64,000 nucleotides of DNA from positions 16,344,501 through 16,408,500 of the forward strand of contig NC_079886.1 in assembly GCF_029227915.1 (NCBI RefSeq), in the 5' to 3' direction. The stretch comes from Hydractinia symbiolongicarpus (taxonomy: Eukaryota > Cnidaria > Hydrozoa > Anthoathecata > Hydractiniidae). The notes under the pieces are model-generated. The model worked only from the letters and a program-made list of their open reading frames with translations. It was not told the DNA's origin and did not search any database. The translations under genes were made by a program, and so were the position numbers. The number at the start of each line of letters is the position of its first letter. Within the stretch, counting starts at the first letter, position 1. Shown here piece by piece: positions 6,881-64,000 of this stretch.

Positions 6881-8966
6881 AGTTTTTTACACTTAGTTTT
6901 GGATGTCACAACGAAGAGCTGAAAAATACATTTTTTTAACAAGGACCAGGAAACTTATCTGAGAAGGTCTTACTTTTTTTCACATGTTCAGCTTAAAATA
7001 GTTCTTATTTTATTCTTCTATTCTGTTGGTATTATTTGACACTTCATTGCAAGTATTTACGACTTGAAACGAAAATCGCAACAATTGATTCTATTTAAAA
7101 AAAATAGAATATCAGTAAAATTACAGCCTACTGTTTTTATTTTTCAGCTATTCCTAGCCTCATCACATCATACAGCAACTAGGAAATGTAAGAACAGAAC
7201 TATAAATGGGTATTAATTAATACCTTACATGAACGAAAACAAAAACTTTTTCAAAAAGCTGAAACAAAGATCTTATCAGTTCTCTTTCAGTTAAATCAAC
7301 GCTATCTTGGTCTGTTTAAATAAACAAGGCAAAAATTTAACTCGATTAATTACACGTTGCCTAACTCTTCAGCTAAAAACAAAGCTTTTGTAAACCAATA
7401 ACCTAGAAGAATATTCTGCTCTTTCCAAAGACTTCCAAAAGTTTACTTCTCATTAAATAACACATTAAAAAATCCAAAGAACCTGGGAACGAGGTTGAGA
7501 AAAATCTCCATACCTTAACTCTTCACGTTAACAATAATCGCAATAAATCAAACTCGATCTCATGACGAGAACCAGAAGAATAATTTTGTAAATTGAGACT
7601 TTTGCAGTAATTAAAACCCAACTTCGTCACCACGAAACACTGGTAGTGACAACAAAAATCAAAATGTGCAAAATAGTTTTTCGTACTTCTTTTTTCTTTA
7701 TTGTACTTTTTATCTATACGTTAATTATATTTCCATTGAAGTTTTCTGTATTGGCCGTTGTCATGTGAAGTGTTTATCGCTTGCGACTTCCTCGTCTCAA
7801 AGCAATTCGAATTGATGACTTTTGTAATATTGCTCCGAAAAACTCTTTTCCTTATACTTTGCGATTTTATTGACACCATTTAAATAATTTTTGGTTGCGA
7901 TTAGTTAAAAATTTGCTTCTTTCAATGCGCGCTTTTACATGCAGAAATTTTCGTTTAATAAAAATCTTGCTTCCATGGCCCCCTTATCTCTATTACGATC
8001 CCTGTGTCAATAAACCAGTGAACAAAAAAAGTAAAATCTTTTGATATTTTTCACAACATTATTTGTCTTCGTATATACATAGCCAGACAAAAAGTATTTT
8101 CACTAATCTCAACACAACAGGATAAACAAGACAAACAAGACGTAAAAAATATGAAACGTAAAATCCAAGACGCAAATTTTAACTAGCTAAGGCTCAATGT
8201 TGCTTTATATTTTTGCAGGTTCAAATGTTGCTTACTTGTTATTTGTTGGCTATCTACTTCAGGGTAACAAATTTACGTGTTTGCTTGCTTAGTTAGTTAG
8301 GCTGGTGTGTCTCTTCTTATAATTCCTGCTTGTCCTTTTTCTTATCTACTAACTTCAGGCAGGTTGTTGTTATCAGTGGCTAAGTTTTAAAGTATCTCAA
8401 TTTGTTTATCCAAAAGCGTGTAGGTTGATAGTGTACTTCATCATCGATATTACAGAGAGCACAAATAAAAAAAATAAAAAAATATCAATGAAAAAACATG
8501 GTAGCTGTAGTTTAACAGTCAAAATGGCAGATTTGCGAACTTATGTCGGTACTCAGTGACTGACTGTTCTTGCTCGATAAATCAACTTCTTGTAATTCGT
8601 CACAACAAAGTCGACAAAAATACATTTCTTATTTCGTGTGCCTATAGAACGAGTATAGACTTGCTCCCTAAGTAACGAAATATTTGGTTTAGTAAGTGTG
8701 TCCCTCGCATTTTAAATAAATAATATGAACAGCCCACACGGAAGTTTAGTTGTTATCAAACAAACATGTGGTAGTGTGTTTTATACACAAAATAAAAGAC
8801 AAAATAGCTTTCAGTTAAATCAAACTGGGCACACTTATAGTACGTCATTAAAGGAACAAAATAGAAACAATAAATATTTGCTTGCGTCAGCACATTTTCT
8901 GTAACGTCATGAAAAGCTTAACATTTGTCCAAAATATCACCACCAAATATCAACTGGTCTGATTCG

Positions 8967-9389
8967 TTATTTTATCTCAGTACTCGCTATTTTATCTCAG
9001 TACTCGCTATTTTATCTCAGTACTCGCTATTTCATCTCAGTACTCGCTATTTCATCTCAGTACTCGCTATTTCGTCTCAGTACTCGCTATTTTATTTCAG
9101 TACTCGCTATTTTATTTCAGTACTCGCTATTTTATCTCAGTACTCGCTATTTTATCTCAGTACTCGCTATTTTGTCTCAGTACTTTCTATTTCATCTCAG
9201 TACTCGCTATTTTATCTCAGTACTCGCTATTTTGTCTCAGCACTCGCTATTTTATCTCAGTACTCGCTATTTTATCTCAGTACTCGCTATTTTGTCTCAG
9301 TACTTTCTATTTCATCTCAGTACTCGCTATTTTATCTCAGTACTCGCTATTTTATCTCAGCACTCGCTATTTTATCTCAGTACTCGCTT
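8967..9389. repeat. 20-bp minisatellite, about 21 copies
   Basis: A 20-bp unit, TACTCGCTATTTTATCTCAG, is repeated about 21 times with few substitutions: TTT/TTC, ATC/GTC/ATT, TAC/CAC and TCG/TTT variants. A higher-order pattern is visible: a block containing TTTGTCTCAG-TACTTTCTAT recurs about 120 bp apart (9172 and 9292). Because 20 is not a multiple of 3, the open frames across it repeat every 60 bases and are not real genes. Confidence 0.95.
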
Positions 9390-10445
9390 GTTATTTCGGT
9401 ATTTAACGACTGACTGTTTTTGCTCACCAAATTAAGTTCTCGTTTTCCTTCTTTAAAGGTTTTTTTAATTCATTCCTTGTCTCCAAACCTTTATATATTG
9501 TTAAAACCAACGCATTCACCTCATTACTTGATGTGAAAACAGGAGCATGGGTCCTCATTATTTCCATTTAAACTTTAATGTTTCGAAAATTTGTTTTTTT
9601 TTAATAATATTTTTTTTTTATACAGAAACGTTAAATTTTGGTTCAGGCTGGATGTACTTATTTGTTAACAGTTTTTCAGCCTGGGATGTTCATATTTTAT
9701 GTTCTTTCGAAAAATAAGGAATTGTCTGGCTATTAACTCTCAGACACAAGTACTTTTTTAAAAATATGAATATATCCATAATTTTTTGACAACAACTTTT
9801 TGTCACTGAGCACGATTGATGAGCACCTGCTGTCGTGCCGATGACAAAATTGGGCACTGATGCTTGAAACATTATTTCCTTTCGTATGGACCTGCAATAA
9901 TACCTCAAAGTTGAGTGGTCACAAATTATGGCTAATAGACGACGTGTCCGTATTTTTTGTTGCTAAGCCTCTAAGGCGCCGTCATGCCACGCTGTTTGAA
10001 GTTATCATCAGAATTAGAGGCTGGAAGAATCCGTTATATCACATTCGCAAAAGTATTTCATTTCCATCTCCTTTACTAAGAAGTATCGCTTAAAAACAAA
10101 AGAAACAAATGTGTAATTATAAAGATAATTTCCAAGGAAAGTGTGAGAAAAAATTATTACTTAAGTAAAAAAGTATAAATTCCACTTAAGGTTTTTCTGC
10201 TAAACTACATTCCGTGCATTGTTGTTTTGCACAACTGAAATTGTGGCTGCCATCTTGAGTCACAGGAAGACAGAGAAAAATGCAGATAGTATAATATGGT
10301 ACATTTCTTGCCAGTATGAACCTCATAAAATAAAAATGAAACTGATCTATTTTAAACACAGCCCGGAGACAATAATTGGTGACAAAAAATGGGCTTCAAT
10401 AGTTCTAATTTCTTCTGTTAGAATAACAGTAAAACTTGCGTGACG

Positions 10446-17600: not shown

Positions 17601-17848
17601 TAAAAAAAAAGGACAGCCAGCCTCACATTTTACAACTTTAAAAAAACTTACAGTTATATTTTTTCTGCGCGCATATACAAATCAAATTTTGTTTGTTGGA
17701 TGATTTCCGATTATCTAAGCTCCAAAATGTTTTTTATGTGCACAAACAGTTATCAGCACGAATATAAATAATTACTTGAGTTGTATAACTTATCAGAAAA
17801 TAATACAAACAGTTTATACTTTTTATTTCTTCTAATTACTCTTCTTAT
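14654..17848. other. Intergenic/5' region of gene A; no gene recognised
   Basis: The first exon of gene A should lie here, but no candidate with a start codon and a phase-1 donor was convincing. The stretch is AT-rich. It has a run of about 10 C at 16626-16636 and several homopolymer tracts. Confidence 0.4.
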
Positions 17849-17854
17849 TTATTG
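17849..17854 (-). terminator. Candidate poly(A) signal for SELENOO
   Basis: AATAAA on the minus strand, about 450 bases past the SECIS element. It is the first such hexamer I noticed beyond the SECIS. A second AATAAA lies at 17823-17828. The assignment is positional only. Confidence 0.35.
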
Positions 17855-18300
17855 CTAAACTGAATTGATGAGAATTTAGATCATCCGTACTGTTACACAA
17901 AGTTCTGAAGCACCGGCAAGGAGCGTCTCTGGTACTCCTTCTGTGAAGTTAGATCGTAGATGTTGCCGTCTTTTCTTGAATAAACAAAAAAAAATGTTCA
18001 TGAATGAGCGAGTTCGAAATTTAGATGAATGTCAAATCTCAATTAGTGCAAACCACAGACCGCAAAACTGGCATACAACATTTAATTTTTTGTTTTTTTT
18101 GTCTTGTTTTTTACTATTTGTCAAAGTTTAGTTTTCACTCTCCAACCAAAGAAAAGTTAAGAAAGCAATGTAAGTAAGCAAAAATCTTCAACTTATTTAG
18201 GCAGGTACAAGTGTACAGGTAAAAGAAAAATAGAAAAACATTGTTATGTTACTTCATCAAATTTACATGATATTCACATGATAAAATACACGCTTACGCG

Positions 18301-18362
18301 ATACATCAAGTCAATATTTTTATACTTTGATAAGTTAAACATTGACCTTCATATGTGATCAC
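18301..18362 (-). promoter_or_regulatory. SELENOO: Predicted SECIS element of the selenoprotein O 3' UTR
   Basis: On the minus strand an AUGA (18352-18349) is followed 12 bases later by AA in an apical loop, and a UGAU (18308-18305) closes the structure. UGAA opposite UGAU gives the U.U, G.A, A.G non-Watson-Crick quartet that defines SECIS elements. Helix II is GGUCAAUGUUU paired with AAAUAUUGACU (11 pairs, two G.U). The apical loop starts AA and contains an ACUU/AAGU mini-stem, as in type II elements. The lower helix is weak. Distance to the Sec codon is about 3.7 kb as sequenced, but about 330 bases once the inserted transposon is removed, a normal spacing. Seen in sequence; function inferred. 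Confidence 0.82.
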
Positions 18363-18605
18363 CAAAAAAAAATTCACCATATTGGAATTTGTATAACATG
18401 ATCACGTTCACGGGAGCATTGTATGTAAGAAACCTCAGTACAGCAGGCTACAGGCTTGTTACTTGAAATACGGCTTTCAAAGAAGGTTTGAATCCAGTTT
18501 TGTATTCACACAACTGTTAAAGTGTTTTAAAGTAATTCTTATAACAGGCAAACAAGGATACAAAAACATTCCACGGGCAAACGACTTTGGCATTTGGTAC
18601 CTTAA

Positions 18606-18715
18606 GGGAAGAAATTTTCGCGGGAATTTAATTTCGCGGTTGATCAAAACGATTTTTTTCGCGGAATTTAATTTCGCGGTCGAGAAAAAAATATAATTTT
18701 CGCGGTCGAGAAAAA
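18606..18715. repeat. Left subterminal TTTCGCGG array
   Basis: Five or so copies of TTTCGCGG, most in the context AATTTCGCGGTCGA, all in the same orientation, within 110 bases of the left end. In this superfamily, repeated subterminal motifs are often transposase-binding sites; that role is inferred here. Confidence 0.75.
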
Positions 18716-18736
18716 ATAGTCTTTCTAAATTGTTAA

Positions 18737-20514
18737 TTACTCGTTACATTCATCATCGATAATGAAGTCAAATGCGTTTCTATCAAAGTCTTCTTCGAAC
18801 CCCCATTCTGCATCATCATCATTGTCGTCGTCATCTTCATCATTTTCTACGATTTCGTTTACGTATCCTTCCCGTATCTCGTCCGATACTTCGATGAAGC
18901 TGGGCTGGTTAGCAATCTCATCCGGTGACATAGCCAACGGCGCTATCTCATTAAACGGGTCGACGCTTGGTAGATTCAACTTTCCTTTCTTTATCGCATC
19001 ATAAATTCCAGCAATTTTCCAACCTTTAACAATAACATCAACACCAGCTACTGAGGCGATGTGATTGTAGTAGTCCACAATCCAACTTGCATGTAATGGT
19101 TTCATAGTCGTTAGTTTGAACTCAATGTTGATGTTTTCCACTTTTACTCCAGCATCAAGGGCGTTCTGAACCTGTTGTGTGTACCAATCAGAAAACTTGC
19201 TTTTCATGAATTTCTTGCAATGGCCGTTTACTGTTAAATCCAGCGGCTGGAATAGATGGGTCATATTGTTGGGTACCATGATGAAAAATATGTTATTTCG
19301 TGTTAAGTGAGACGTGACTTCGTCGGTGATTTGGCCACGAAACACATCGAATACCAAGAGAGCTGCTTGGTCTGGCTTTCCCAGTGCTTCTCGCTGAGCC
19401 TTGACATATGGTAGAATAACCTCATCGATAACTTTTATTGATTCTGCTGTATTACTGAAGTGTTTTGGGTTAACACTCAAGCTAAATGAATCAGGGAATT
19501 TGAATCTTGGGAGACTTTGGGTAGTCTTTCCGCCGTAAATAAGTTGGATTGGTAGGAAGCTTCCATCCAATGTGACCACAAAGGTAGCTGTTATGCAACG
19601 TTTATCAGATGAGCCTGCGATTCCGATAGACTTTGTGCCTTTTTTGGCCAATGTATGGTTGCCGCTTGGTACGTACTTGAGTGGAGTTTGGTCCAAATTC
19701 ATTACGAGACTGTCTGGAATGTTATGTTCTTCGACAAGGGATACGATATCATGCAAATAGAGTAGTTGTGCTTCTTTTTTCGCTCCTTCGGGTATTTCGA
19801 CCTTTCCTGTTGTTTTCATGCGTTTTACAAACCCCATTCTTTGAAATAAGCTCTTAGCCCAAGATGACGAATCGAGATCGATGTGTGCTAAATTTAACTG
19901 TGGGTTTCGTGCAATTAGAGCTTTGGCAACTGATACCGCAATGGCAGACGTAATTATCCCCCCTCTGTTTCGCACCGCCAGTAGAAATTTTTGGACCATT
20001 TGGTCCAAAGTTCCTAGTAAAAGTGGTCGACCTCTTCTGAGAACTGCCAACTCACGTCCGACAGAACGCTTCTCCTTACTCGCCTTTTTTACCTCGTCTT
20101 GATACAGTTTACACCACCCTCTAACAGTACTTTCGTTCAATGGTTGGCTTCTTGATGAAAATTTCCTCGTAGCAGCAGCGGGGCCGTGGATTGCAGCATA
20201 TTTGCCGATATTAAATCTGTCTTCGTTTGACCATTTTTGGTAGGACTTTCTGTTGGTCTTTCGAGGAGTAGATGCGGCTTGGGCAGCAGCTTGGAAATCT
20301 AACGGTCCTAAACCTGATTCTCTCTGCAAGTTACGCGACGATTCTGAAAAATTAAAGGGATATCTGGGTATTACATTTGTATCAAATAAATATCAACTGC
20401 TTTAGAATTTTAATAATTCTAACAAGGCTTTAAACTCGGAAGATTTTTGCTTAAAAAGTAAGTATTACAATATGAAAGTTAATAATAAAAAGTAGTGTTA
20501 CCTGAACTTGACAT
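18737..20514 (-). CDS. DDE transposase, pogo/Tigger/jerky type, spliced
   Basis: A cut-and-paste transposase. Exon 1 (20502-20514) encodes Met-Ser-Ser-Ser plus one base, with donor G/GTAACA. Exon 2 (18737-20343) follows TTTTTCAG in the matching phase and runs to TAA, giving 539 residues. The ATG in exon 1 is preferred over the TTG at the start of the long exon frame. An N-terminal helix-turn-helix region (about residues 35-90) precedes the catalytic core. Catalytic Asp are visible in NLDQTPL (about D222), VFDVFRG (about D337) and FQPLDLT (about D373). The last two are separated by 35 residues, as in the pogo lineage. The C-terminus is a long acidic tail rich in Asp and Glu. No frameshift or stop was seen, so it may be active. 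It is transcribed in the same direction as SELENOO. Confidence 0.9.
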
Positions 20515-21019
20515 TTTTCTTTCGTCTTGTTTTGTCTTTTTCACATGAACGCGTTTGTTTACATGTGTCAGTTTATCACCCAAACTCAAGAACACGAGTG
20601 AAAGATATTTTGATCGATGAACAATACAAATATACAAAATTTGTGGTTTAATAGACCATTTCTATATATCCAAAACGAGACGAATTTCTATTAAAAACTT
20701 TCAATGGTTTTTTTTTGTTTCGGGAGAGCAAATAAATGAACATTCGAAAAGAAAAATTTTCCAGACAACAATTTTCCCGCGTGTTTATCCTATTGTTTGA
20801 GGGGGAAACCCTTCGATGAGAGCAAATAAATGAACATTCGAAAAGAAAAATTTTCCAGACAACAATTTTCTCGCGTGTTTATCCTATTGTTTGAGGGGGA
20901 AACCCCTTACTCGCTGAAGTAAAGGAGACTGAAGTAAAAGAGAGTCAAACAATGAGGACAAACTTATTGAGACAAGAAGGAAACAAGAAAGTACAGAAGA
21001 AAGTTACTGTCACTGTAAG
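20515..21019. promoter_or_regulatory. Divergent promoter region of the transposon
   Basis: The space between the divergent transposase and HIRAN genes. It must hold both promoters. It contains an 88-bp direct duplication (next entry) and no coding sequence I can recognise. Confidence 0.5.
20724..20905. repeat. 88-bp direct duplication with 94-bp period
   Basis: Copy 1 is 20724-20811 and copy 2 is 20818-20905. They start GAGAGCAAATAAATGAAC and end GAGGGGGAAACCC. One difference was noticed (TTTTCCCGCG versus TTTTCTCGCG). It lies upstream of the HIRAN gene in the shared promoter. Confidence 0.9.
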
Positions 21020-21643
21020 ATGGCGTACAGTAAAGTTTTCGAATTTTCAGCAGCAGTAAGAGGATACCATTATTATAAAAGCTTTTGGAATCCTCAGAGA
21101 GAACAATTTCTAGAATGTCATCACGAGTTTGGAAATCCCTTTGATCGTTTCGCGATCAAGGTTTGCGAAATAGGAGATACAAATGCAGTTGGTCATCTTC
21201 CACGAGAGATCTCGCGTGTTACAAAATTTTTCATGGATAGAGGAGCAATCGTTAATGCCAAGCTTACAAGTGAACATTATAGACGCTCTCCCATCGTTCA
21301 AGGCGGTATGGAGATTCCATGTAAAATCACAGTGAAAATTGCTGGTATTTGTATTAACCTTCTGTTGATGGAAAAATATAAACAACTTATAGAGGAATTG
21401 TACATTGAACCCAAGAATGAGGAAAATCTGGGATCCTTTTTACAACCTAATAATGTGACCGAGGAAAGCATCAATTTACCTTCCACTTCATCCCAATCGA
21501 AGAAGAGCAAGTCCAAAGATGAAGCGAGCAATCAGAAAGATATCCGAAGTTTTTTTAGCAAGACCATTAGCATTAAAACAACTACTAAAAGGCGAGATGG
21601 CAAGAAGAAAACGGAAAAGATTATCACGATTGACTCTGATTGA
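21020..21643 (+). CDS. HIRAN-domain protein with PIP box, transposon passenger gene
   Basis: 207 residues, intronless. Residues about 5-107 match the HIRAN domain: VRGYHYYK, then NPFDRFAIKV, VGHLPREISR and GGMEIPCK. HIRAN domains bind free 3' DNA ends, as in the fork-remodelling helicase HLTF (family knowledge). The low-complexity Ser/Lys-rich tail holds QKDIRSFF at residues 172-179, an exact PCNA-interacting-protein box (Q-x-x-I-x-x-F-F). The protein ends IITIDSD, a hydrophobic core followed by acidic residues, like a SUMO-interaction motif. AATAAA follows at 21764-21769. It is divergent from the transposase and inside the inverted ends, so it moves with the element. A role in steering insertion or repair at replication forks is inference. 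It has no helicase or nuclease domain. Confidence 0.85.
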   Translation: MAYSKVFEFSAAVRGYHYYKSFWNPQREQFLECHHEFGNPFDRFAIKVCEIGDTNAVGHLPREISRVTKFFMDRGAIVNAKLTSEHYRRSPIVQGGMEIPCKITVKIAGICINLLLMEKYKQLIEELYIEPKNEENLGSFLQPNNVTEESINLPSTSSQSKKSKSKDEASNQKDIRSFFSKTISIKTTTKRRDGKKKTEKIITIDSD

Positions 21644-21654
21644 TTAATGAAAGT

Positions 21655-21660
21655 TTTATT
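21655..21660 (-). terminator. AATAAA on the SELENOO strand inside the transposon
   Basis: A minus-strand AATAAA about 290 bases inside the right end of the transposon. It would be met by a SELENOO transcript before the SECIS. Whether it is used cannot be told from sequence. Confidence 0.4.
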
Positions 21661-21775
21661 GATTATTGTAATTCTTAGAGCATCTCTTATGTTAGAAAAG
21701 ATACTTTTATGTATATGCCATTTCTCCATTCTCAGTTTTCACTGAATTTATAATTCCAATGCAAATAAAATCAAA

Positions 21776-21948
21776 AATTTTCGCGAGAATTTAATTTCGC
21801 GGTCAACAAATTTCGAAAAATTTCGCGGGAATTTAATTTCGCGGTCGGTGAATTTTTAAAATTTTCGCGGGAAGAAAATTTCGCGGTTTTTTCCAAAAAC
21901 CGCGAAAACCGCGAAATTTTCTTCCCGCGAAAATTTCTTCCCTTAAGG
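21776..21948. repeat. Right subterminal TTTCGCGG array and terminal hairpin
   Basis: Several TTTCGCGG or TTTCGCGA copies, again many as AATTTCGCGGTC, followed by a palindrome at about 21862-21935. Its arms run TTTTCGCGGGAAGAAAATTT-CGCGG and return. This hairpin makes the right end longer and more structured than the left. Confidence 0.75.
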
Positions 21949-22027
21949 TATTTTTCTTTTTGAATCAGGCTAAAACAGCACTCTCTTTATGGGCTATAAC
22001 AACAAGCTAGCCTGCACACTGAGGTTT

Positions 22028-27926
<5,899 letters not shown>

Positions 27927-38000: not shown

Positions 38001-41000
38001 ATAAGTACACACCTTGCAAAGAGATGCAAAAGATAGATCTTCTGGCAACCTGTTATCTTTTTGGAGAATTTGGGAAAGTGTCTTTACTGCTACTTTGTTT
38101 ATTGTGTTGACAAAATGCATTTGAAGTTGATCCATTGCAATCTAAAAAAGTTTAGTGATAAGGTAAGCCAAAATATTTAAGTTTTTAAAATTACTTGAAT
38201 AACGTCATTAACAAAAATAAATTTTTGCAAGATTCAATTTGTTTTCTTATGAATCATATATAAGATGTATGAGCAATTTAAAAATAATATTAATAGAATT
38301 ACAGAAAGAAACAATATTAAATCATGCGTGAGTGGTTATAAAACTTGGCTTGTAAGGTCCATGGTTTAGTCAACAGAGCAGACATGTTTAGCAAGTGCCT
38401 TTACTACAGCTATGGGTCATGAACTCATACCATGTTAGGGAAATTTAGCATTGCCGATGTATACCTAATGTATACATTCAGAACGCAGGATCCACATAAC
38501 AGCACTTCAAACTCTATCCTGAATAAATCCAAAAAAATACATTACTTTCACAAAATTTTCATTGGGGTTTGTTATACAAATGGTGATAATTGTCATTTTT
38601 CATGATGACTTAATACCACAAGTTCTGTGAAAAATCAACAGTAGCCTATTGGTAATCTTTTACAATTAATAATAAGTTTAAAAGGGTTACCTGTGTTTTT
38701 CCAAGAAGCTTATAAGCTCGATGTATTTTACTATATTCCTTCTCACTGAACATGATACAAACATTAGAAAGGGCAACATCTAACTGTTCCTGTAAAACAA
38801 TAATATATTTAATAATACCAGGAAGCAAAGATAAGAAGCGAAAATCTACATCAGAATGTTATTTCCTTAAAAAGTATACCTCAATTTGGTCTAGGATTTC
38901 TTGTAAATTTGAACTCAGTTCACTAAAATAAAAAAAAAATCACAAGGTTGAATAATCGAATACAGGTGTAGTACATGTATAATAAGAGGTAGCCCTTACG
39001 TTAAAAACCTGTATAGACAATTCGTTCATAAACATTTTTTAACTTTAATCCAAAGTAATTGTGTTTAGCTGGTCAATAAAAACTATTGGTAACTTTTTTT
39101 TACAAGTATTAAAGATGATGGCTCCTATTCGTTGCAAAACAGGGTTAAAGTAACATAAAATCAATCGCATATACAGTGTGTACTTTAGAATTTAATTAAG
39201 AAAGATTACAGTCAGTTTCTTCACTTCATGTTAACACTTAGCTCATTTAAACAAAACAACAAGTTGAACCATTCCACAAGTTCACAAGCATTTATCATTA
39301 TAGTTAGTTTGAGTAAAATGCACACCCATGCAAAGATCCCAGGAAGAGTAAGCTCATATGCTCTGTTTTTTCATAAATTTTTCTTTGAGTTTAATGTTTT
39401 GTAAAAACAAACAATTGACCCTTCTTCAGAAGAAAATTCTTCAGGCATTTTAGCATGGTAAAATGGGTGATTTTTTTATAAATGTGCCCTATTTCTCTCC
39501 TGATTTTCTTTCCATCAGTACAGAAATGATGGAGAACACTAAACGTTAAGACTTTTTATTATGCTTATTATGTTTTATATGGATAAATACACGAAAAGAT
39601 GCGCTGTTTACAATATTAGGTGAAAATTTCACACTCAAATGGTTGGTATTGTACATTATTTTATTTTGAAAAGAAAAGATTTTGAAAGAGTAACAACTGT
39701 AACCTGATACAGTTGTATTGATGAAAAGTCACTGCAGCTTGTTGACATTCCAGACAAAGTTGGATTGCACTGGCATAATTACTTTCCTAAATAGAACATC
39801 AAAAAAATAACAAAAATTAAAATTAAAAACCAAAAAAAACTAAAACAGTGCTATTAAATCGTCATTGGCAGTGATTAAAAATACTTTTGCATATCTCAAC
39901 CTTTAATCTCATTTGCAGGCAACCAATCTTTTAAAGCCACTTCCCTACACTGTTTCATTATAGAAGCACAATGTCACTGTCTTCCCATGTGGCTCCACCC
40001 CTTACAACCCCTGTGGTTACCATATGGCCACTGCCACAAAAATCAAGCATAGTTTTAGAATCATATACTTCTTGTTTTTGACTAACCTGTAACAGTTCTT
40101 TCAGTCTAACATCTGTCTCTTGTAATGTTTTGATAAACCGAAGCGACTTTAATAACTTCTGCAAAAGCACTTTTCGGCGATTCTTACTCAGTACTTCCAA
40201 ACCATTAATGGCTATTTCTGTTTTAGCATGGGTGAGACGTCTAAATAGAACATATTGAAAGTTGAAACACAATTTTTTTGGCTGCACTGTAACATTACAC
40301 AATCAACCATTTTTAATACAGGTTGAAATTTAATTAGGGCACGTACATTCGACCATGTGTGCAAACGCTAGTAGCTTTTTGCAGATTTGCCTCTAAATCC
40401 ATCACTCTATCCAGTTCCTAGAAATAACAGTTTTGAAATATTTCAAAACACATTCGCAGGATTTGTAAATTGGTGGTTATTTATTACAGTAACAATGTTA
40501 TTTTTTATCATCCTGATCTACCATCACGTTTATAATAATCTACCTTATTTAAATTTATTTAATAGTATTAAGGTTATTAGGGTTCCCATTCCTTTTTCAC
40601 ATTAAGCAGTCTTATCAATAAAGAAAAGGCTAGGCTTTGAGAAATCACATGCTCAAAATCGTCCAGAAGTGTGATTTTCAATTTCCCAATCAGCTTGACT
40701 ACAGAAAATGAACTTTTGCACATTACACACGCAATTTAGATCGGAAGGCAATACGCATAAATATGTTTCAGGTATGATTGCACACGTAAAAATCACAAGA
40801 AGGTTTAAAATTGTGGAAGATTTGAGGTTTTTCACAGCTTTGTAGGAGATTAAAAAGGCAGAGAGTTTTAAACAATAAAAGTAACATTGTTACAAAAAAA
40901 GACAACCATGGGGGCAAATCAAGTTTGTACACAATAATTTGTGGAATTTTTAATGTTATCATATCATATATATAATTTAATGTTATCATATATATTTTTT

Positions 41001-50566: not shown

Positions 50567-52728
50567 TTTAAAGTGGCTAGCCCAGAAAATCACAAAAACC
50601 TATAGTTAGTGAATTGTTTCCACTGGGGGCCACTAGAACAAAAAAGAAACAAAAAATGATAAACCTTAGACTGCCTCAGCTCAATCAAACATAGTAACAT
50701 TTATAATCTGTGAAAATTGAAAAGAAAAAGAATAAAAAACAAAAATTAAAAAATTAAAAAGTGATCTCCATTAGAATTTGCCAAGTACATTAGAGATGGA
50801 AGTCTTAAACGAAAGCAGACTTCCATCACAGGTCACTTGGTCAGGAAGATTATTCCACACTTTTGCAGCTCTAAATGGGAAGGCTTTTTTGCCAAATTCC
50901 GTGTTGACCAAGGGAAGTGTGAACCTGTTTTTTGAAGCTCCTCTTGTTTGATGATTATGACAGTTTTTTGTCAAAAGGAATTTTGAGCGCATGTAATCAG
51001 GAGCAATGTGATTCATGGCTTTGAAAACTAATATGGCATCGTTTTTGATGAGTAAATTATTCATTGAATATTCCCTCTCTTTCCCAAGAAAGGTACGGAC
51101 ACATTTTAATCGTTTTTCTAGTTTTCCCAATCTACCTTGGGTGGCACAAGCCCATGCCGAGGAGCAGTAGTTGAAATATGGCATGACAAGTGCATTAATT
51201 AAAAGGTTTTTTGTGTGAGGTGTTAAACAGGATGCAATGGTTCTAATTTTAGAATATTTAATTAGTATTTTTCTATTTATGTCATTAATGTGCTTTTCCC
51301 ATTGCATTTTTTGATCAAATGTTACCCCAAGATATTTAACTTTTTCGCTCCTCTTCAAAGGAATACCCATATAGTTGATAGTTTTGTTCTCAACTTTTTT
51401 TAACTGGCTGTGGTTGCCGAAAAAGATTGTTTCAGTTTTGTCCGTATTAATAGTCATTTTGTTATTATTCAGCCAGAGGTCGACTTGTGAAAGTTCTAAC
51501 TCGACCTGGGAGACAAGGGTATCCAAGTTTTTATGAGACGAAATAATTATTGTATCATCCGCATATAGATGATGGTAGTTTGAATTGATGACAGATTTTA
51601 AGTCATCAATATACAAAAGAAAGAGCAGGGGCCCCAACACAGATCCCTGTGGCACCCCAAAAGCGTCTTCATGAAGCAGATCTGATCCTGTGTCGTTTAC
51701 AAGAGTCAGCTGCATTCGGTCCGTTAAGTAGGACTCGAACCAGTCAAAGGCAGCATCTCTGATGCCAAAACACCATAGTTTTTTTAACAAAATTTTATGA
51801 TCAACAGTGTCAAAAGCTTTTTTAAGGTCAATGAGCACAGCACAAACAAACTTATGTTGGTCGAGCTCAGTAAGAATAAAATCAGAGACATCGACTACTG
51901 CAGTTTCTGTGGAAAAGAGTTTTCGAAATCCGGACTGTCTGTCATTCAGGAAGTTGTGCTCAGAAATAAAATGAGACATTTGCTCATGCACTAACTTTTC
52001 AAAAATTTTCATAGGAATTGGCAAAATGGAGATAGGCCGATAATTAGTAGGATCTGTTTTATTGCCACTTTTAAAAATAGGCGAGACCCTTTTAGTCTTC
52101 CAACATTTAGGTACATAACCAGTAAATAAAGATTTGTTGAAAAGACTTGATAAATAAATACTTAAAACTGACGAACCTGCTTTTAGCAGTCGTGAACCAA
52201 TTCCGTCCAAGCCTGTAGCTTTATTAAGTTTTAGTGATCTAATTATTTTTTCGACACTTTTGGTCTCAATACGAGCCCACCGAAAATCGTGTCCGCTAAC
52301 AGGTGGATTAACATTAGTAGTGTCAGAAGAAAATTTAGAGGCTAGTTTGGCACCAACACTGACAAAAAATGAATTGAATGTGTTGGAAATTTCTTTTGGA
52401 TGAGAAGTTTCTGTACCATCGTTTTGGACTACTCGTTTTATCGAGGTAGTATTGCCTGACTTATCAGGAACCAGTTTTTTTAGGGTTTTCCAAAGTTGTT
52501 TTGGCCGTTTTTGAAAGTCCTGCAAAACGTCATTATAGTACTCATTTTTGAGTCGATTTTTGAGACCTATAACCTGGTTCCTTTTTTGTTTGAAAGCTTC
52601 CCAGTCTATGATGGATTTTGTTTTTGATGCTTTCCGTTTCAAGAAGTCTCTTTCTTTGATGGCTATTATTAATTCATCAGTGACCCATGCCTCAACACGG
52701 CCAGAAAATCTATGTGTTTTGAAAGGGG
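50525..52728 (-). mobile_element. CR1/L2-type non-LTR retrotransposon, 5'-truncated copy (copy 1)
   Basis: The 3' part of the element seen in full at 54615-58050: reverse transcriptase, 3' UTR and a (TAA)n tail at about 50526-50565, typical of CR1/L2 3' ends. The 5' truncation is not a retrotransposition truncation; it is the breakpoint of the tandem duplication. Confidence 0.92.
50771..52642 (-). CDS. CR1-type reverse transcriptase fragment (open frame)
   Basis: 623 residues open from a Met inside the element. It covers the region before the palm (NATGLDG-like, NYRPISILP), the fingers/palm motif LIDLKKAFDTVDH, PQGSVLGPLLFLLYIDDL, and the catalytic box YADD in HHLYADDTIIIS. The C-terminal CR1 region ends at FKTSISNVLGKF. 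Unlike the second copy it has no frameshift at the FSTETAV region. It lacks the PHD and endonuclease domains, so it cannot be autonomous. Confidence 0.9.
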   Translation of the reverse strand: MKRKASKTKSIIDWEAFKQKRNQVIGLKNRLKNEYYNDVLQDFQKRPKQLWKTLKKLVPDKSGNTTSIKRVVQNDGTETSHPKEISNTFNSFFVSVGAKLASKFSSDTTNVNPPVSGHDFRWARIETKSVEKIIRSLKLNKATGLDGIGSRLLKAGSSVLSIYLSSLFNKSLFTGYVPKCWKTKRVSPIFKSGNKTDPTNYRPISILPIPMKIFEKLVHEQMSHFISEHNFLNDRQSGFRKLFSTETAVVDVSDFILTELDQHKFVCAVLIDLKKAFDTVDHKILLKKLWCFGIRDAAFDWFESYLTDRMQLTLVNDTGSDLLHEDAFGVPQGSVLGPLLFLLYIDDLKSVINSNYHHLYADDTIIISSHKNLDTLVSQVELELSQVDLWLNNNKMTINTDKTETIFFGNHSQLKKVENKTINYMGIPLKRSEKVKYLGVTFDQKMQWEKHINDINRKILIKYSKIRTIASCLTPHTKNLLINALVMPYFNYCSSAWACATQGRLGKLEKRLKCVRTFLGKEREYSMNNLLIKNDAILVFKAMNHIAPDYMRSKFLLTKNCHNHQTRGASKNRFTLPLVNTEFGKKAFPFRAAKVWNNLPDQVTCDGSLLSFKTSISNVLGKF

Positions 52729-54860: not shown

Positions 54861-56036
54861 TTAGAATTTGCCAAGTACATTAGAGATGGAAGTCTTAAAC
54901 GAAAGCAGACTTCCATCACAGGTCACTTGGTCAGGAAGATTATTCCACACTTTTGCAGCTCTAAATGGGAAGGCTTTTTTGCCAAATTCCGTGTTGACCA
55001 AGGGAAGTGTGAACCTGTTTTTTGAAGCTCCTCTTGTTTGATGATTATGACAGTTTTTTGTCAAAAGGAATTTTGAGCGCATGTAATCAGGAGCAATGTG
55101 ATTCATGGCTTTGAAAACTAATATGGCATCGTTTTTGATGAGTAAATTATTCATTGAATATTCCCTCTCTTTCCCAAGAAAGGTACGGACACATTTTAAT
55201 CGTTTTTCTAGTTTTCCCAATCTACCTTGGGTGGCACAAGCCCATGCCGAGGAGCAGTAGTTGAAATATGGCATGACAAGTGCATTAATTAAAAGGTTTT
55301 TTGTGTGAGGTGTTAAACAGGATGCAATGGTTCTAATTTTAGAATATTTAATTAGTATTTTTCTATTTATGTCATTAATGTGCTTTTCCCATTGCATTTT
55401 TTGATCAAATGTTACCCCAAGATATTTAACTTTTTCGCTCCTCTTCAAAGGAATACCCATATAGTTGATAGTTTTGTTCTCAACTTTTTTTAACTGGCTG
55501 TGGTTGCCGAAAAAGATTGTTTCAGTTTTGTCCGTATTAATAGTCATTTTGTTATTATTCAGCCAGAGGTCGACTTGTGAAAGTTCTAACTCGACCTGGG
55601 AGACAAGGGTATCCAAGTTTTTATGAGACGAAATAATTATTGTATCATCCGCATATAGATGATGGTAGTTTGAATTGATGACAGATTTTAAGTCATCAAT
55701 ATACAAAAGAAAGAGCAGGGGCCCCAACACAGATCCCTGTGGCACCCCAAAAGCGTCTTCATGAAGCAGATCTGATCCTGTGTCGTTTACAAGAGTCAGC
55801 TGCATTCGGTCCGTTAAGTAGGACTCGAACCAGTCAAAGGCAGCATCTCTGATGCCAAAACACCATAGTTTTTTTAACAAAATTTTATGATCAACAGTGT
55901 CAAAAGCTTTTTTAAGGTCAATGAGCACAGCACAAACAAACTTATGTTGGTCGAGCTCAGTAAGAATAAAATCAGAGACATCGACTACTGCAGTTTCTGT
56001 GGAAAAGAGTTTTTCGAAATCCGGACTGTCTGTCAT
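54861..56036 (-). pseudogene. CR1 ORF, C-terminal part after the frameshift
   Basis: 391 residues in the frame that continues the reverse transcriptase: FSTETAVVDVSDF, KKAFDTVDH, PQGSVLGPLL, YADDT and the CR1 C-terminus. It starts only because a Met codon happens to lie upstream in the shifted frame. Confidence 0.88.
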
Positions 56037-58029
56037 TCAGGAAGTTGTGCTCAGAAATAAAATGAGACATTTGCTCATGCACTAACTTTTCAAAAATTTT
56101 CATAGGAATTGGCAAAATGGAGATAGGCCGATAATTAGTAGGATCTGTTTTATTGCCACTTTTAAAAATAGGCGAGACCCTTTTAGTCTTCCAACATTTA
56201 GGTACATAACCAGTAAATAAAGATTTGTTGAAAAGACTTGATAAATAAATACTTAAAACTGACGAACCTGCTTTTAGCAGTCGTGAACCAATTCCGTCCA
56301 AGCCTGTAGCTTTATTAAGTTTTAGTGATCTAATTATTTTTTCGACACTTTTGGTCTCAATACGAGCCCACCGAAAATCGTGTCCGCTAACAGGTGGATT
56401 AACATTAGTAGTGTCAGAAGAAAATTTAGAGGCTAGTTTGGCACCAACACTGACAAAAAATGAATTGAATGTGTTGGAAATTTCTTTTGGGTGAGAAGTT
56501 TCTGTACCATCGTTTTGGACTACTCGTTTTATCGAGGTAGTATTGCCTGACTTATCAGGAACCAGTTTTTTTAGGGTTTTCCAAAGTTGTTTTGGCCGTT
56601 TTTGAAAGTCCTGCAAAACGTCATTATAGTACTCGTTTTTGAGTCGATTTTTGAGACCTATAACCTGGTTCCTTTTTTGTTTGAAAGCTTCCCAGTCTAT
56701 GATGGATTTTGTTTTTGATGCTTTCCGTTTCAAGAAGTCTCTTTCTTTGATGGCTATTATTAATTCATCAGTGACCCATGCCTCAACACGGCCAGAAAAT
56801 CTATGTGTTTTGAAAGGGGCATGTTTGTCAGCCACTGTTTTAACATTTTTATTCAGTTTCTCACATGCTTTATCAAGGTCATCATAATTATTAAAATATG
56901 ACCAGTCTAAATTCCTGAGGTCCTTCAGAAAAGCCTCTTCACTGAAGTTCTTGTAGCTACGAACCTTGCATGTTTTAGGTTCAAATTTTGGCCTTTTGAA
57001 TTTTCTAATCACATAAACTAAATTGTGATCACTGATGCCTAAATCCATGACACCAGTTTTAGAAATACAAGAACTGTTAGAAAGTATCAAGTCTATAAGA
57101 GTGCTACTATTTTCAGTAACACGAGTTGGCTCCGTAATATGTTGTTTTAGGAAAAGAGTGGAGCATAATTCCTTTATTTTGGAGGAAAGAGCATATTTTG
57201 AAAGCATGTTACAGTTAAAATCTCCCAAGATAAAAACTTCTTTTTCTTTTGGGAGCTTGTTAAAACACTGTTTAAAATGAGTACACAGGTTTTCGGTACT
57301 CTGCAAATCACTACCTCCAGGTGGCCTGTAAACCCCACACAGATAAATAGGTTTAGTTTTTTTCAGGCACACTTTCACCCATAGTGATTCAACATTTTCG
57401 AAGTAAAGGTGTTTCAAAAGGTGGCTATCCAAGTTTTCATTAACAAAAATTAGAACACCCCCACCTCGTCTATTCCGATCATTCCTATAACAAACATAGC
57501 CATCAATTTTAACATCATTGTCAGTGATGGTGTCATCAATTTTGGTTTCACAGATGGAGAATACATCAAGTTTTGTTTGATGTAGCAGAAGTTTAACATA
57601 GTCTAGTTTGGATGACAGACCATTAATGTTGAGAGGGGCCATTTTTAAGCCCTTCCCATTTCTGATTGCCTCAAAATCAAAGTTTTCATCAATAGTAATA
57701 TTGATGTTGTCCGGAATTTCGTCACCAAATGACTCCTCATTAGCAAAGGGCAAATTACGAGAAAGACAGGGACTGCAAACGAAAAACAGTTTATCTTCAG
57801 GAGTCTTCATAAATTGTTGATATTTTTTATCAGAAATACGCTCACATTTTTTATGAGCCCATAATCCACACTTGTCACAAGAAAGTGCTTTGTGTGTTTT
57901 TGCCACAGGTTTTAAGCATGAAGAACAGGGATACTTAACAGGACCTGGGTTGAGGCAGATGTCCCCTGACAAGAGGATTAAAAAATAGAAATACTTGTGC
58001 CTGCTTGGCTTAAGTTTTGATAAAGCCAT
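55972..58029 (-). pseudogene. CR1 ORF, N-terminal part: 2A-like, PHD finger, APE endonuclease, RT start
   Basis: 685 residues. GDICLNPGP at residues 22-30 is 2A-like. A PHD-type zinc finger follows (CSSC, then CDKCGLWAHKKC and CSPC). The APE endonuclease shows LNINGLSSK, ICETKID, LGDFN, STLIDLIL and SDHNLV. The RT begins with NYRPISILP and stops soon after LNDRQSGFRK, where an extra T shifts the frame; the last few residues are out-of-frame read. It was probably one ORF of about 1,045 codons before the insertion. Confidence 0.9.
57940..57966 (-). other. 2A-like motif GDICLNPGP
   Basis: 2A peptides make the ribosome skip the Gly-Pro bond at NPGP; the consensus is D-V/I-E-x-N-P-G-P. Here Glu is replaced by Cys. 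2A-like sequences at the N-terminus of CR1/L2 ORFs are known from sea urchins and other invertebrates (family knowledge). Activity of this variant is unknown. Confidence 0.7.
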
Positions 58030-61112: not shown

Positions 61113-64000
61113 ATGTTGCTTTTTGTAACTTTTTTACTCCTACGTGCGATATCCATTGATTGCAGTAAAGCTCTAACTGGACTTATTTTGTACCATCGCA
61201 GCGTGCCAGCCAGACTACCAGCCGAATCGTGCTTGTATATGCTCTACTTTAGTGAACACGATGGATCCAACATAACATTAAAACAAATTATTACAAATCC
61301 TATAAGAGAGAAGCATACTAGTTACTTGTTTAATCTTCGTGATGAGCCGGTTGATTATCAAGCCATACAGATAAATCTTAACGTTGGTTGGTGCTCTGAT
61401 GACGGAGGAACCAGATTTCTTGATTTTACTTCAGGACCTCTTGAAAAAGGCAGTTTTACGCCATCCCGAACAAGTGGTTCTTCTGATGTATATGGACCAG
61501 CTATTCTTCTACACCCAGGTTACATATTTTACAATTTTTATTCTTACCTGGCATAACCTGTCCATAATAACGCCCTTAGCAACAAATTTTTTTACTTTGA
61601 GCAGAAAATATTTGTCACAACGTACTAGACACGTGACTAAAAATGTCTGTGTGAATGGATTTGGTTAAGAATATAAGCAACATCATGTACAACAGGACGT
61701 ATGTAACAACATAGCAGCACTTATTCTGAAAATTACGAGGACTTAAGGCTTACTAAGGCAAAAATCCTTTAACAAGACTTGCTGTCAGTTTCAAACATGT
61801 GTGCTTGGAACGTTTTCTTGACAAGAAAAGCTTCATAAGAAAACTTTAGTAACCAATAACAAGAAGTATTAGTCGAAAATATTTAACGTTTTGCCATTAG
61901 CCAAAGGAAAAAATATTGTTTTCGCTTTTATAGAGTTTTGTGTGATGTGTATGTGTGGTATGTATCTGTGTTCCAAATCGATCAACCGAAAAGGGGAAAG
62001 AGTTTCAAATCAATTTATTAAATCAGCAAATATTTGATCGACCATTTTTGCCTTGGTTCTTAATGCGTTAGTTTTGCAGCGTTAAATGTCAGTATAACAT
62101 GTTTTGTAAAAATTTGGCTGCGCATGTTTCGGACGTAGCGCTGTAATATAAAGTTTTAGGCAGAATATATAACTTTAAGAGTAAGATGTATATTTTTAGT
62201 GCAAGATTCTATTGATGAAGAAAGAAAAGAAAAACCAAAAGACAAACGAATCGGAGGGCGTATCGTATACGACGACAGCGTGCCTAAATATATTCCACCT
62301 GACTCGTGTTTGTTTTTGGAATACTTTGCAAAACACACCGGAAGAAACACCACTTTAGCGCAGATAATTCACAATCCTTCAAAAGAACATGATGGGAAGT
62401 ATTTTTTCACCGTTCCGAATATGGAAGCAGAGTATGAGGCGATCAGAATTAACTTGAATATCGGTTGGTGTTCTAAGGATGGTTCTACTCACAAAGGCGA
62501 CTTCACATCTGGTTCATTTTACAGAAATAAAATGGAACCAACAAAAAATTTACGAAGATTTGGCCCGACCGTGAACATAGCTCCAGGTATGTATATTTTG
62601 CTTTTTGATTGTTGCATTTTTTCTGTGAATGATAAAGTTATCGTGTTTAAAGTTTTTTCCAAAAGCAGGAGTGCTTACCAGCATTTCTTTCTTTTTCGTC
62701 TCAGAGTGGACTTAATACTAAAAGTGCAAAATTAAAACAATAAAGCGATTTTGAATTCAATGGACAAACTTTTCCGTTGCACAAAATTAAGATGAATAAA
62801 TCTGAAATGTCTATGCATACAAGGATTTACCCGGTTAGCCTCGTCCTCAGGGCTTAAGCATGGGCGGCTTTTATAGAATATATAGGCACCGTTGGTAATT
62901 GTGGTCAACTGTTTAAATTGCATATTCTGTATCTATCATTGATGTACAAGGCACTAGTATTGTCATGCGCATGCGCTTAATTTACTTAAAGAAGATGATT
63001 TTTCTTTTATTGCAGTGACCCGTAAAAGACCTTCAACAGAATCGACATCCTCAGGCGAACCTTCTACTACGGAGTCGACAACAACCGTCGACGAGTCAAA
63101 ATACACGGATGAGGTTTCCACGACGGATTCTACAATGGGTTTTGAAGTTTCCACGACGGACTCAATACCAACTAGCGAAGACCTAACTGACAACTTCTTC
63201 ACAACAAGATCGACAACTACGGAGAAAGATTCTACAACTGAGTCGACATATAATAACGACGCTTCAACAACCGAATCGACATTCAATAACGACGTTTTGA
63301 CAACAGAATCAATACCACTTGACGAAGTTTCCACAACAAAATCGACATTTAATGATAACGTTCCAACAACTGAATCGACATTCAATGACGACGTTTCCAC
63401 AACAGAATCGACATATAATGACGACGTTTCCACAACAGAATCGACATACTTTGACGACGTTTCGACAACGGAATCGACATTCAATGACGACGTTTCCACA
63501 ACAGAATCAACATTCAATGACGACGTTTCCACAACAGAATCAACATTCAGTGACGACGTTTCCACAACAGAATCGACAAACTATGACGACGTTTCGACAA
63601 CGGATTCGACATTCAATGACGACGTTTCCACAACAAAATCAACATTCAATGACAACGGTTCGACAACGAAATCGACATTTAATGATGACGTTTTCACAAC
63701 AGAATCGACATACAATAACGATGTTTCGACAACAGATTCGACATTCAACGACGTTGTTTCCACAACAGAGTCGACATTCAATGACGATGTTTCGACAACG
63801 GAATCGACATTCAATGACGACGTTTCCACAACAGAATCAACATTCAGTGACGACGTTTCGACAACAGATTCGACATTCAATGACGTTGTTTCCACAACAG
63901 AATCAACATTCAGTGACGACGTTTCCACAACAGAATCAACATTCAGTGACGACGTTTCCACAACAGAATCAACATTCAGTGACGACGTTTCTACAACAGA
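61113..64000 (+). CDS. Secreted protein with two YbaY-like domains and a Ser/Thr-rich tandem-repeat stalk (runs off window)
   Basis: Exons: 61113-61518, 62200-62586, 63016 to beyond 64000; all three visible splice edges are phase 1 with GT/AG. MLLFVTFLLLRAISIDCS is a signal peptide. Exon 1 encodes domain copy 1 (SVPARLPAESCLYMLYF, ITLKQIITNP, YQAIQINLNVGWCSDDG, DFTSG) and exon 2 encodes copy 2 (SVPKYIPPDSCLFLEYF, TTLAQIIHNP, YEAIRINLNIGWCSKDG, DFTSG). The 'proline, SCL, small beta domain, I-N-hydrophobic-GWC' layout recalls the YbaY-like lipoprotein domain (uncertain). Exon 3 encodes Thr/Ser/Asp-rich repeats of STTESTFNDDV, a probable O-glycosylated stalk. The symmetrical phase-1 exons fit domain shuffling. 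Large minus-strand frames in exon 3 are mirror artefacts. Confidence 0.8.
61519..62199 (+). other. Intron 1 of the secreted-protein gene
   Basis: Donor CCCAG/GTTACA and acceptor TATTTTTAG/TGCAAG. No other feature recognised. Confidence 0.7.
62587..63015 (+). other. Intron 2 of the secreted-protein gene
   Basis: Donor CTCCAG/GTATGT and acceptor TTTTATTGCAG/TGACCC. It contains a GTTAGCCTCGTCCTCAGGGC scrap (62837-62856), related to the MITE end motif. Confidence 0.7.
63220..64000 (+). repeat. 33-bp coding tandem repeat (STTESTFNDDV)
   Basis: More than 20 copies of a 33-base unit whose translation is STTESTFNDDV with variants (TYNDDV, TFSDDV, STTDSTFNDVV, STTKSTFND). The frame is kept in every copy. 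Copies near the window end (63840-64000) are more uniform than the first ones, suggesting recent growth at that end. The array continues off the window. Confidence 0.92.

What the first reader, a model, noticed from the sequence alone, without database searches (positions are those of the whole stretch)
18301..22039. A transposon has inserted between the selenocysteine codon and the SECIS element of SELENOO
Seen: the Sec TGA at 22037-22039, a 3349-bp TA-flanked transposon at 18600-21948, then a SECIS-like structure at 18301-18362. Removing the insertion restores a normal spacing of about 330 bases. Known: UGA is read as Sec only if a SECIS is in the same mRNA. Inferred: the AATAAA at 21655-21660 inside the transposon could end the SELENOO mRNA before the SECIS, giving a protein that lacks the last three residues. 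Alternatively, the insertion is spliced out or read through. The transposase mRNA has no AATAAA of its own that I saw before the left end, so it could run into the SELENOO 3' UTR and carry the SECIS.
Basis: partly seen in the sequence, partly recalled or inferred. Interest (0 to 1): 0.9.

Follow-up and report, generated by a model that had tools for sequence, protein, structure and literature searches.

The report
Young transposon splits SELENOO from SECIS
In the genome of what is most likely a colonial hydroid, a very recently moved DNA transposon sits in the tail of the only selenoprotein O gene found, between the UGA codon for selenocysteine and the RNA hairpin needed to read it, which makes a natural test of how far apart those two signals can be.

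Summary
SELENOO has 15 exons, 14 GT..AG introns and an open frame up to UGA-Ser-Ser-UAA. A 3,349-bp DDE_1 transposon flanked by TA lies 77 nt after the stop; the one SECIS match lies beyond it. UGA-to-SECIS spacing is 333 nt without the element and 3,684 nt with it. No second SELENOO locus and no second copy of the SECIS flank were found. The window copy is identical over 3,349 bp to two copies elsewhere, against 1.33% heterozygosity: a very young, probably polymorphic insertion (inference).

The effect is open. 3,684 nt is within the published mammalian range, 207-5,207 nt, so distance alone need not block Sec. Premature polyadenylation is possible but unproven: AATAAA occurs 2 times (3.3 expected), ATTAAA 6 times (3.1 expected). 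Clean splicing-out looks unlikely. The transposase stop is UAA, so its capturing the SECIS would recode nothing. Added here: the transposase intron lies on the SELENOO sense strand, so read-through mRNA could become a decay target. No RNA data were available.

The parts
22028..27851 (-). SELENOO coding region, 15 exons, 621 residues with UGA as residue 619
   Evidence: all 14 introns GT..AG; from the ATG at 27851 (an in-frame upstream ATG lies at 27926)
22037..22039 (-). UGA (Sec) codon, followed by Ser-Ser-UAA
   Evidence: three of 120 listed homologues end LRVS-Cys-Ser-Ser
21949..21950 (.). TA target-site copy, SELENOO-proximal
18600..21948 (-). DNA transposon, 3,349 bp, transposase on the SELENOO sense strand
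18598..18599 (.). TA target-site copy, SELENOO-distal
21907..21948 (.). Terminal inverted repeat, right end; also forms a local 32-bp perfect hairpin (21859-21936)
   Evidence: duplex energies
18600..18641 (.). Terminal inverted repeat, left end
18737..20514 (-). Transposase gene: exon 1 20514-20502, intron 20501-20344 (158 nt), exon 2 20343-18737; 539 residues, stop UAA; no stop inside
   Evidence: (DDE_1, 34.1 bits)
21020..21643 (+). HIRAN-domain open frame, 207 residues, opposite strand
   Evidence: 26.4 bits, cut-off 24.7
21655..21660 (-). AATAAA on the SELENOO sense strand, use unknown (another at 19434-19439)
18298..18362 (-). SECIS; core from ATGA at 18352 to GAT at 18305
17822..17853 (-). 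Two AATAAA beyond the SECIS (17853-17848, 17827-17822), candidate native SELENOO end signals
   Evidence: use not tested

Best explanation
A very young TA-inserting DDE_1 transposon landed in the 3'UTR of the only SELENOO gene found in this assembly, 77 nt after the stop codon and before the SECIS (shown). It lengthens UGA-to-SECIS spacing from 333 to 3,684 nt (shown) and is probably still polymorphic (inferred). Most likely this allele is a partial, not a complete, loss of Sec insertion (inferred): some transcripts read through the element, keep the SECIS and can still insert Sec; others end inside it and yield a 618-residue SelO without Sec-Ser-Ser, or are lost through a long, duplex-bearing or spliced 3'UTR.
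For: Gene, UGA and SECIS. Element, TA, inverted ends, transposase. Youth: window copy identical over 3,349 bp to L002 and L003, heterozygosity 1.33% (PMC11067881, passage). Spacing; within the mammalian range of 207-5,207 nt (PMC3316567, passage). Precedents for mRNAs that lack a SECIS beside ones that have it: SelS variant 1, 5-16% of mRNA (PMC3628699, passages); human Sepp1, 10-25% lacking SECIS 2 (PMC5133445, passages). tRNA-Sec genes present.
Against: No RNA or protein data. The SECIS scores below Rfam's gathering cut-off and was not compared with others of the species (search not answered). Long-spacing data are from mammals. AATAAA is not above expectation, so ending inside the element may be rare; ATTAAA is above it, so it may equally be common. 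The other allele was not seen.
Confidence: 0.5

Rival explanations
1. Complete separation: all SELENOO mRNAs from this allele end inside the element, so the SECIS is lost and SelO always lacks Sec-Ser-Ser.
For: Sense-strand AATAAA at 21655-21660 and 19434-19439 and six ATTAAA in the element; ATTAAA 6 against 3.1 expected.
Against: AATAAA 2 against 3.3 expected; no gene on this strand is seen to end at 21655-21660; use not shown.
Confidence: 0.2
2. Silent insertion: transcripts read through and Sec insertion is near normal, because SECIS elements act over several kb.
For: Mammalian UGA-SECIS distances reach 5,207 nt (PMC3316567, passage); occupied distance 3,684 nt.
Against: Candidate poly(A) signals, strong hairpins and a sense-strand intron lie in the path.
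Confidence: 0.2
3. The element is spliced out of SELENOO mRNA, restoring short spacing.
Against: Best donor 3.8 and acceptor 2.8 in the stretches scanned, against minima of 4.9 and 4.0 for 15 real introns (small profile built from the same introns, limited stretches).
Confidence: 0.05
4. Read-through mRNA is spliced at the transposase intron (20501-20344) and removed by nonsense-mediated decay, so the allele mainly lowers SELENOO mRNA.
For: A GT..AG intron of 158 nt lies on the sense strand, about 1.5 kb after the stop.
Against: Splice-junction-dependent decay is general animal knowledge, not tested here; one paper search gave nothing relevant for cnidarians. Splicing of this intron is itself predicted.
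Confidence: 0.1
5. Assembly artefact.
For: Identical copies exist elsewhere.
Against: HiFi reads with N50 13 kb assembled by hifiasm (PMC10411563, passages); clean TA on both sides here and at five other fetched copies; SECIS flank found once in the genome.
Confidence: 0.02

Closest known systems
Human SelS (SELENOS) mRNA variants (PMC3628699, passages)
   Same: Same coding region, two 3'UTR forms; the form without SECIS gives a protein truncated at the UGA near its C-terminus.
   Different: There by alternative splicing in a fixed gene; here by a recent transposon insertion, effect predicted only.
Human Sepp1 alternative poly(A) (PMC5133445, passages)
   Same: A poly(A) site upstream of a SECIS yields mRNA without it.
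   Different: There one of two SECIS elements is lost; here the only one would be.
Mammalian Dio2 long UGA-SECIS spacing (PMC3316567, passages)
   Same: Spacing of several kb (Dio2 has the longest average; range up to 5,207 nt).
   Different: Native long 3'UTR, not a foreign insert.
Tc1/mariner-pogo type DNA transposons with DDE_1 transposase (superfamily name recalled)
   Same: DDE_1 domain, inverted ends, TA target copies, internally deleted copies.
   Different: Carries a second, opposite-strand gene with a HIRAN domain.

Membership tests
Selenoprotein O gene (SELENOO) | SelO domain protein with intact frame | tested here: met
Selenoprotein O gene (SELENOO) | In-frame UGA at the C-terminal Sec position | tested here: met
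   105 of 120 listed homologues end just before it by a simple pattern, 3 have Cys-Ser-Ser, 11 did not fit the pattern, 1 had another tail
Selenoprotein O gene (SELENOO) | SECIS downstream with ATGA, helix II, AA, GA | tested here: met
   (22.8 bits, below gathering 35)
Selenoprotein O gene (SELENOO) | SECIS in the same mRNA as the UGA | not testable with these tools
   no RNA data; this is the question itself
Selenoprotein O gene (SELENOO) | Organism has tRNA-Sec | tested here: met
Tc1/mariner-pogo type DNA transposon | DDE_1 transposase | tested here: met
   34.1 bits against cut-off 22
Tc1/mariner-pogo type DNA transposon | TA target duplication | tested here: met
   TA on both sides printed for six of eight fetched copies; L004 and L005 lack the last 2 and 4 bases of one end
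Tc1/mariner-pogo type DNA transposon | Terminal inverted repeats | tested here: met
Tc1/mariner-pogo type DNA transposon | CENP-B-like HTH DNA-binding domain (recalled as typical of pogo/Tigger) | tested here: inconclusive
   the Pfam scan of exon 2 listed only DDE_1 and one weak match below its cut-off

The most novel reading that the evidence does not exclude
The insertion has made SELENOO a two-output allele run by the transposon: poly(A) choice inside the element sets how much SelO carries Sec, while in read-through mRNA the inverted ends pair (-67.9 kcal/mol), loop out 3.3 kb and bring UGA and SECIS back to about 330 nt, so Sec insertion survives an insertion that looks fatal. Against it: the right end can instead form a local hairpin (-51.1 kcal/mol).
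Probability: 0.08. Interest if true: 0.8.

Novelty: new variant of a known kind. Interest (0 to 1): 0.45.

Why it matters
UGA-SECIS spacing, poly(A) choice and 3'UTR make-up have been studied with constructs and native long 3'UTRs. Here one recent event changed spacing about elevenfold in a gene found once in the assembly, in a laboratory animal, probably with the empty allele still around. A heterozygous colony would let both alleles be compared in the same cells. Six paper searches listed no paper whose title or abstract start describes a transposon between a Sec codon and its SECIS; they listed 20 of 50, 12 of 27, 15 of 24, 15 of 22, 2 of 2 and 11 of 11 papers, in an open-licence library, and most were not opened (PMC9076623, on editing and SELENON, was seen only in the listing).

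Tried and rejected
A separate SECIS upstream of or inside the element: no other SECIS_1 row between 17601 and 22400 and no other zero-mismatch rule hit (one further hit, at 38562, with one mismatch). The first version of the rule placed the 3' core wrongly and missed the candidate; it was changed. Rfam microRNA and other small-RNA rows at 21795-21939 are the long hairpin of the transposon end; none of the 16 rows reached its gathering score. Splicing-out: thought unlikely, small profile. SECIS capture by the transposase mRNA: without consequence, stop UAA. A second SELENOO or an empty-site contig: none found.

A genome-wide SECIS search (RF00031) was asked many times and never answered, so this SECIS could not be compared with others of the species. 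No eukaryote DNA collection was on hand for H. echinata or other colonies. Papers on HIRAN in transposons: one search listed 10 of 711, none on the point by title. My notes say 619 aa + U + SS and 'five copies, 0 differences'; the right figures are 618 + U + SS, and three copies identical over 3,349 bp plus two that lack the last 2 and 4 bases.
Full report
Source. The window lies in a 480,894,487-base genome held as G000 in 76 contigs. Contig C4 (35,952,230 bases) has the length given for the contig of a protein named LOC130640840 of Hydractinia symbiolongicarpus, and contig C7 (33,314,500) equals the scaffold N50 of HSymV2.0, assembled from PacBio HiFi reads and Hi-C of male clone 291-10 (PMC10411563, passages). 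The paper gives 84 sequences and 482,928,323 bp, slightly more than G000, so the held version may be trimmed. The identification is a strong inference.

The gene. I assembled SELENOO by hand on the minus strand from 27851 to 22028: 15 exons, all 14 introns GT..AG, 621 residues with UGA as residue 619, then Ser-Ser-UAA. The region matches solved SelO structures. The closest database protein, P0001, is 96% identical and ends exactly before the UGA. Of the 120 homologues listed (of 8,000 scored), 105 end just before the UGA position by a simple pattern, as expected when UGA is taken as stop; 3 carry a Cys-Ser-Ser tail, 11 did not fit the pattern and 1 had another tail. The three end LRVS-Cys-Ser-Ser, with Cys where this gene has UGA. 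A Pfam SelO search of the genome gave six matches, all in this locus.

The SECIS. Rfam's SECIS_1 model matches 18298-18362 over its full length with 22.8 bits, below the gathering score of 35. The element has ATGA, a 12-pair helix II, AA, a small upper stem and GA. It is the only zero-mismatch hit of a SECIS rule in 64 kb, with none in 60 shuffled windows; the rule was adjusted after seeing the candidate, so this is support and not an independent test. Its fold is moderately better than shuffles (z -1.89 to -2.36). It was not compared with other SECIS elements of the genome, because that search did not complete. tRNA-Sec genes with anticodon TCA are present.

The insertion. 18600-21948 is a DNA transposon with TA on both sides and 44-nt arms, TA included, that are 93% complementary. 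It codes for a DDE_1 transposase with one 158-nt intron and no internal stop, and on the other strand for a 207-residue HIRAN-domain frame. The copy in the window is identical over 3,349 bp to two others (L002, L003); L004 and L005 have no mismatch over 3,347 and 3,345 bp and lack the last 2 and 4 bases of one end. L006 and L007 are full-length but carry three and one instead of two 94-bp units. From the rows I count eight further, internally deleted copies; the tool scored 40 of 257 candidates, so this is a lower bound. TA stands on both sides of L001-L003 and L006-L008.

Age. The window copy shows no private change in 3,349 bp. Heterozygosity in this species is put at 1.33% (PMC11067881, passage), which would be about 45 differences per 3,349 bp between two average alleles (my arithmetic). 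The insertion is therefore probably much younger than the average allele split and most likely still segregating. This is inference: a bottleneck or sweep could fix a young insertion, and reads were not available.

Geometry. The element's TA starts 77 nt after the stop. From the base after UGA to the SECIS ATGA is 333 nt in the joined empty site and 3,684 nt in the occupied site. In mammals such distances run from 207 to 5,207 nt with a mean of 872 (PMC3316567, passage). Distance alone is thus no reason to expect loss. A DNA search with the 1,000-base SECIS flank found this place only, so no empty-site copy is in the assembly.

How it most likely works. RNA polymerase leaving the last exon now crosses 3.3 kb of transposon. 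On the sense strand it meets AATAAA twice and ATTAAA six times in the element, against 3.3 and 3.1 expected from composition; four of the six ATTAAA are in the terminal repeats, and none of the eight is shown to be used. Transcripts that end there lack the SECIS and would give a 618-residue SelO. Transcripts that read through keep the SECIS; they also carry a local hairpin (-51.1 kcal/mol) and two ends that can pair over 3.3 kb (-67.9 kcal/mol, duplex energy without the cost of the loop), and the transposase intron lies in sense. If that intron is spliced, a splice junction lies about 1.5 kb after the stop, which in many animals triggers decay (general knowledge, not tested here; one paper search gave nothing relevant for cnidarians). 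I therefore expect a partial loss of Sec-SelO from this allele. Precedents for mRNAs that drop a SECIS are SelS (PMC3628699, passages) and Sepp1 (PMC5133445, passages).

Meaning for the protein. SelO transfers AMP to proteins, and the activity of the E. coli enzyme requires reduction of an intramolecular disulfide (PMC10298544, passages). Human SelO has a highly conserved Sec at its C-terminus (PMC12409994, passages). Loss of the last three residues may therefore alter regulation more than catalysis (inference).

Verdict. The drama is reduced by three points: the distance is tolerable by mammalian standards, ending inside the element is not shown (AATAAA is not above expectation, though ATTAAA is), and the insertion is probably a recent allele. 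It remains a rare and directly testable natural experiment.

Noticed in passing
G000:C12:19440535-19475820 (L010-L017) and C14:3902976-3903061 (L009): 36 tRNA-Sec hits above the Rfam cut-off in a tandem array with a unit of about 966 bp, plus a single copy on C14 with a different acceptor stem; anticodon TCA in the loci scanned. The Hydractinia genome paper reports tandem tRNA arrays for the 20 amino acids; its section on them (read in full) does not name tRNA-Sec.
   Followed up: partly
window 21020-21643 (+): HIRAN-domain gene inside the transposon. In relatives, transposase and HIRAN hits share contig lengths (26972, 32620, 99137, 646735, 3296, 2774), which suggests a conserved two-gene element; contigs were matched by length only. 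A 99% identical protein (P0241) is in the database. AATAAA at 21764-21769 (+) could be its end signal (read).
   Followed up: partly
window 20724-20905; L006, L007: A 94-bp unit (88 nt, 99% identical copies) occurs twice in the window copy, three times in L006 and once in L007: a unit-number marker for sorting copies.
   Followed up: partly
window 50771-52642 and 54861-58029 (-): Reverse-transcriptase-like open frames in two near-identical copies; the second is split over two overlapping frames (by reading the translations).
   Followed up: no
P0001 and the other 119 rows: No row among the 120 listed SelO relatives is named Hydractinia, although other proteins of H. symbiolongicarpus are in the database. 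The public annotation may lack or mis-model this gene; not checked, and only 120 of 8,000 rows are listed.
   Followed up: no
window 8925-9413 (+) and 62963-63961 (-): Open frames made of short tandem peptide repeats.
   Followed up: no
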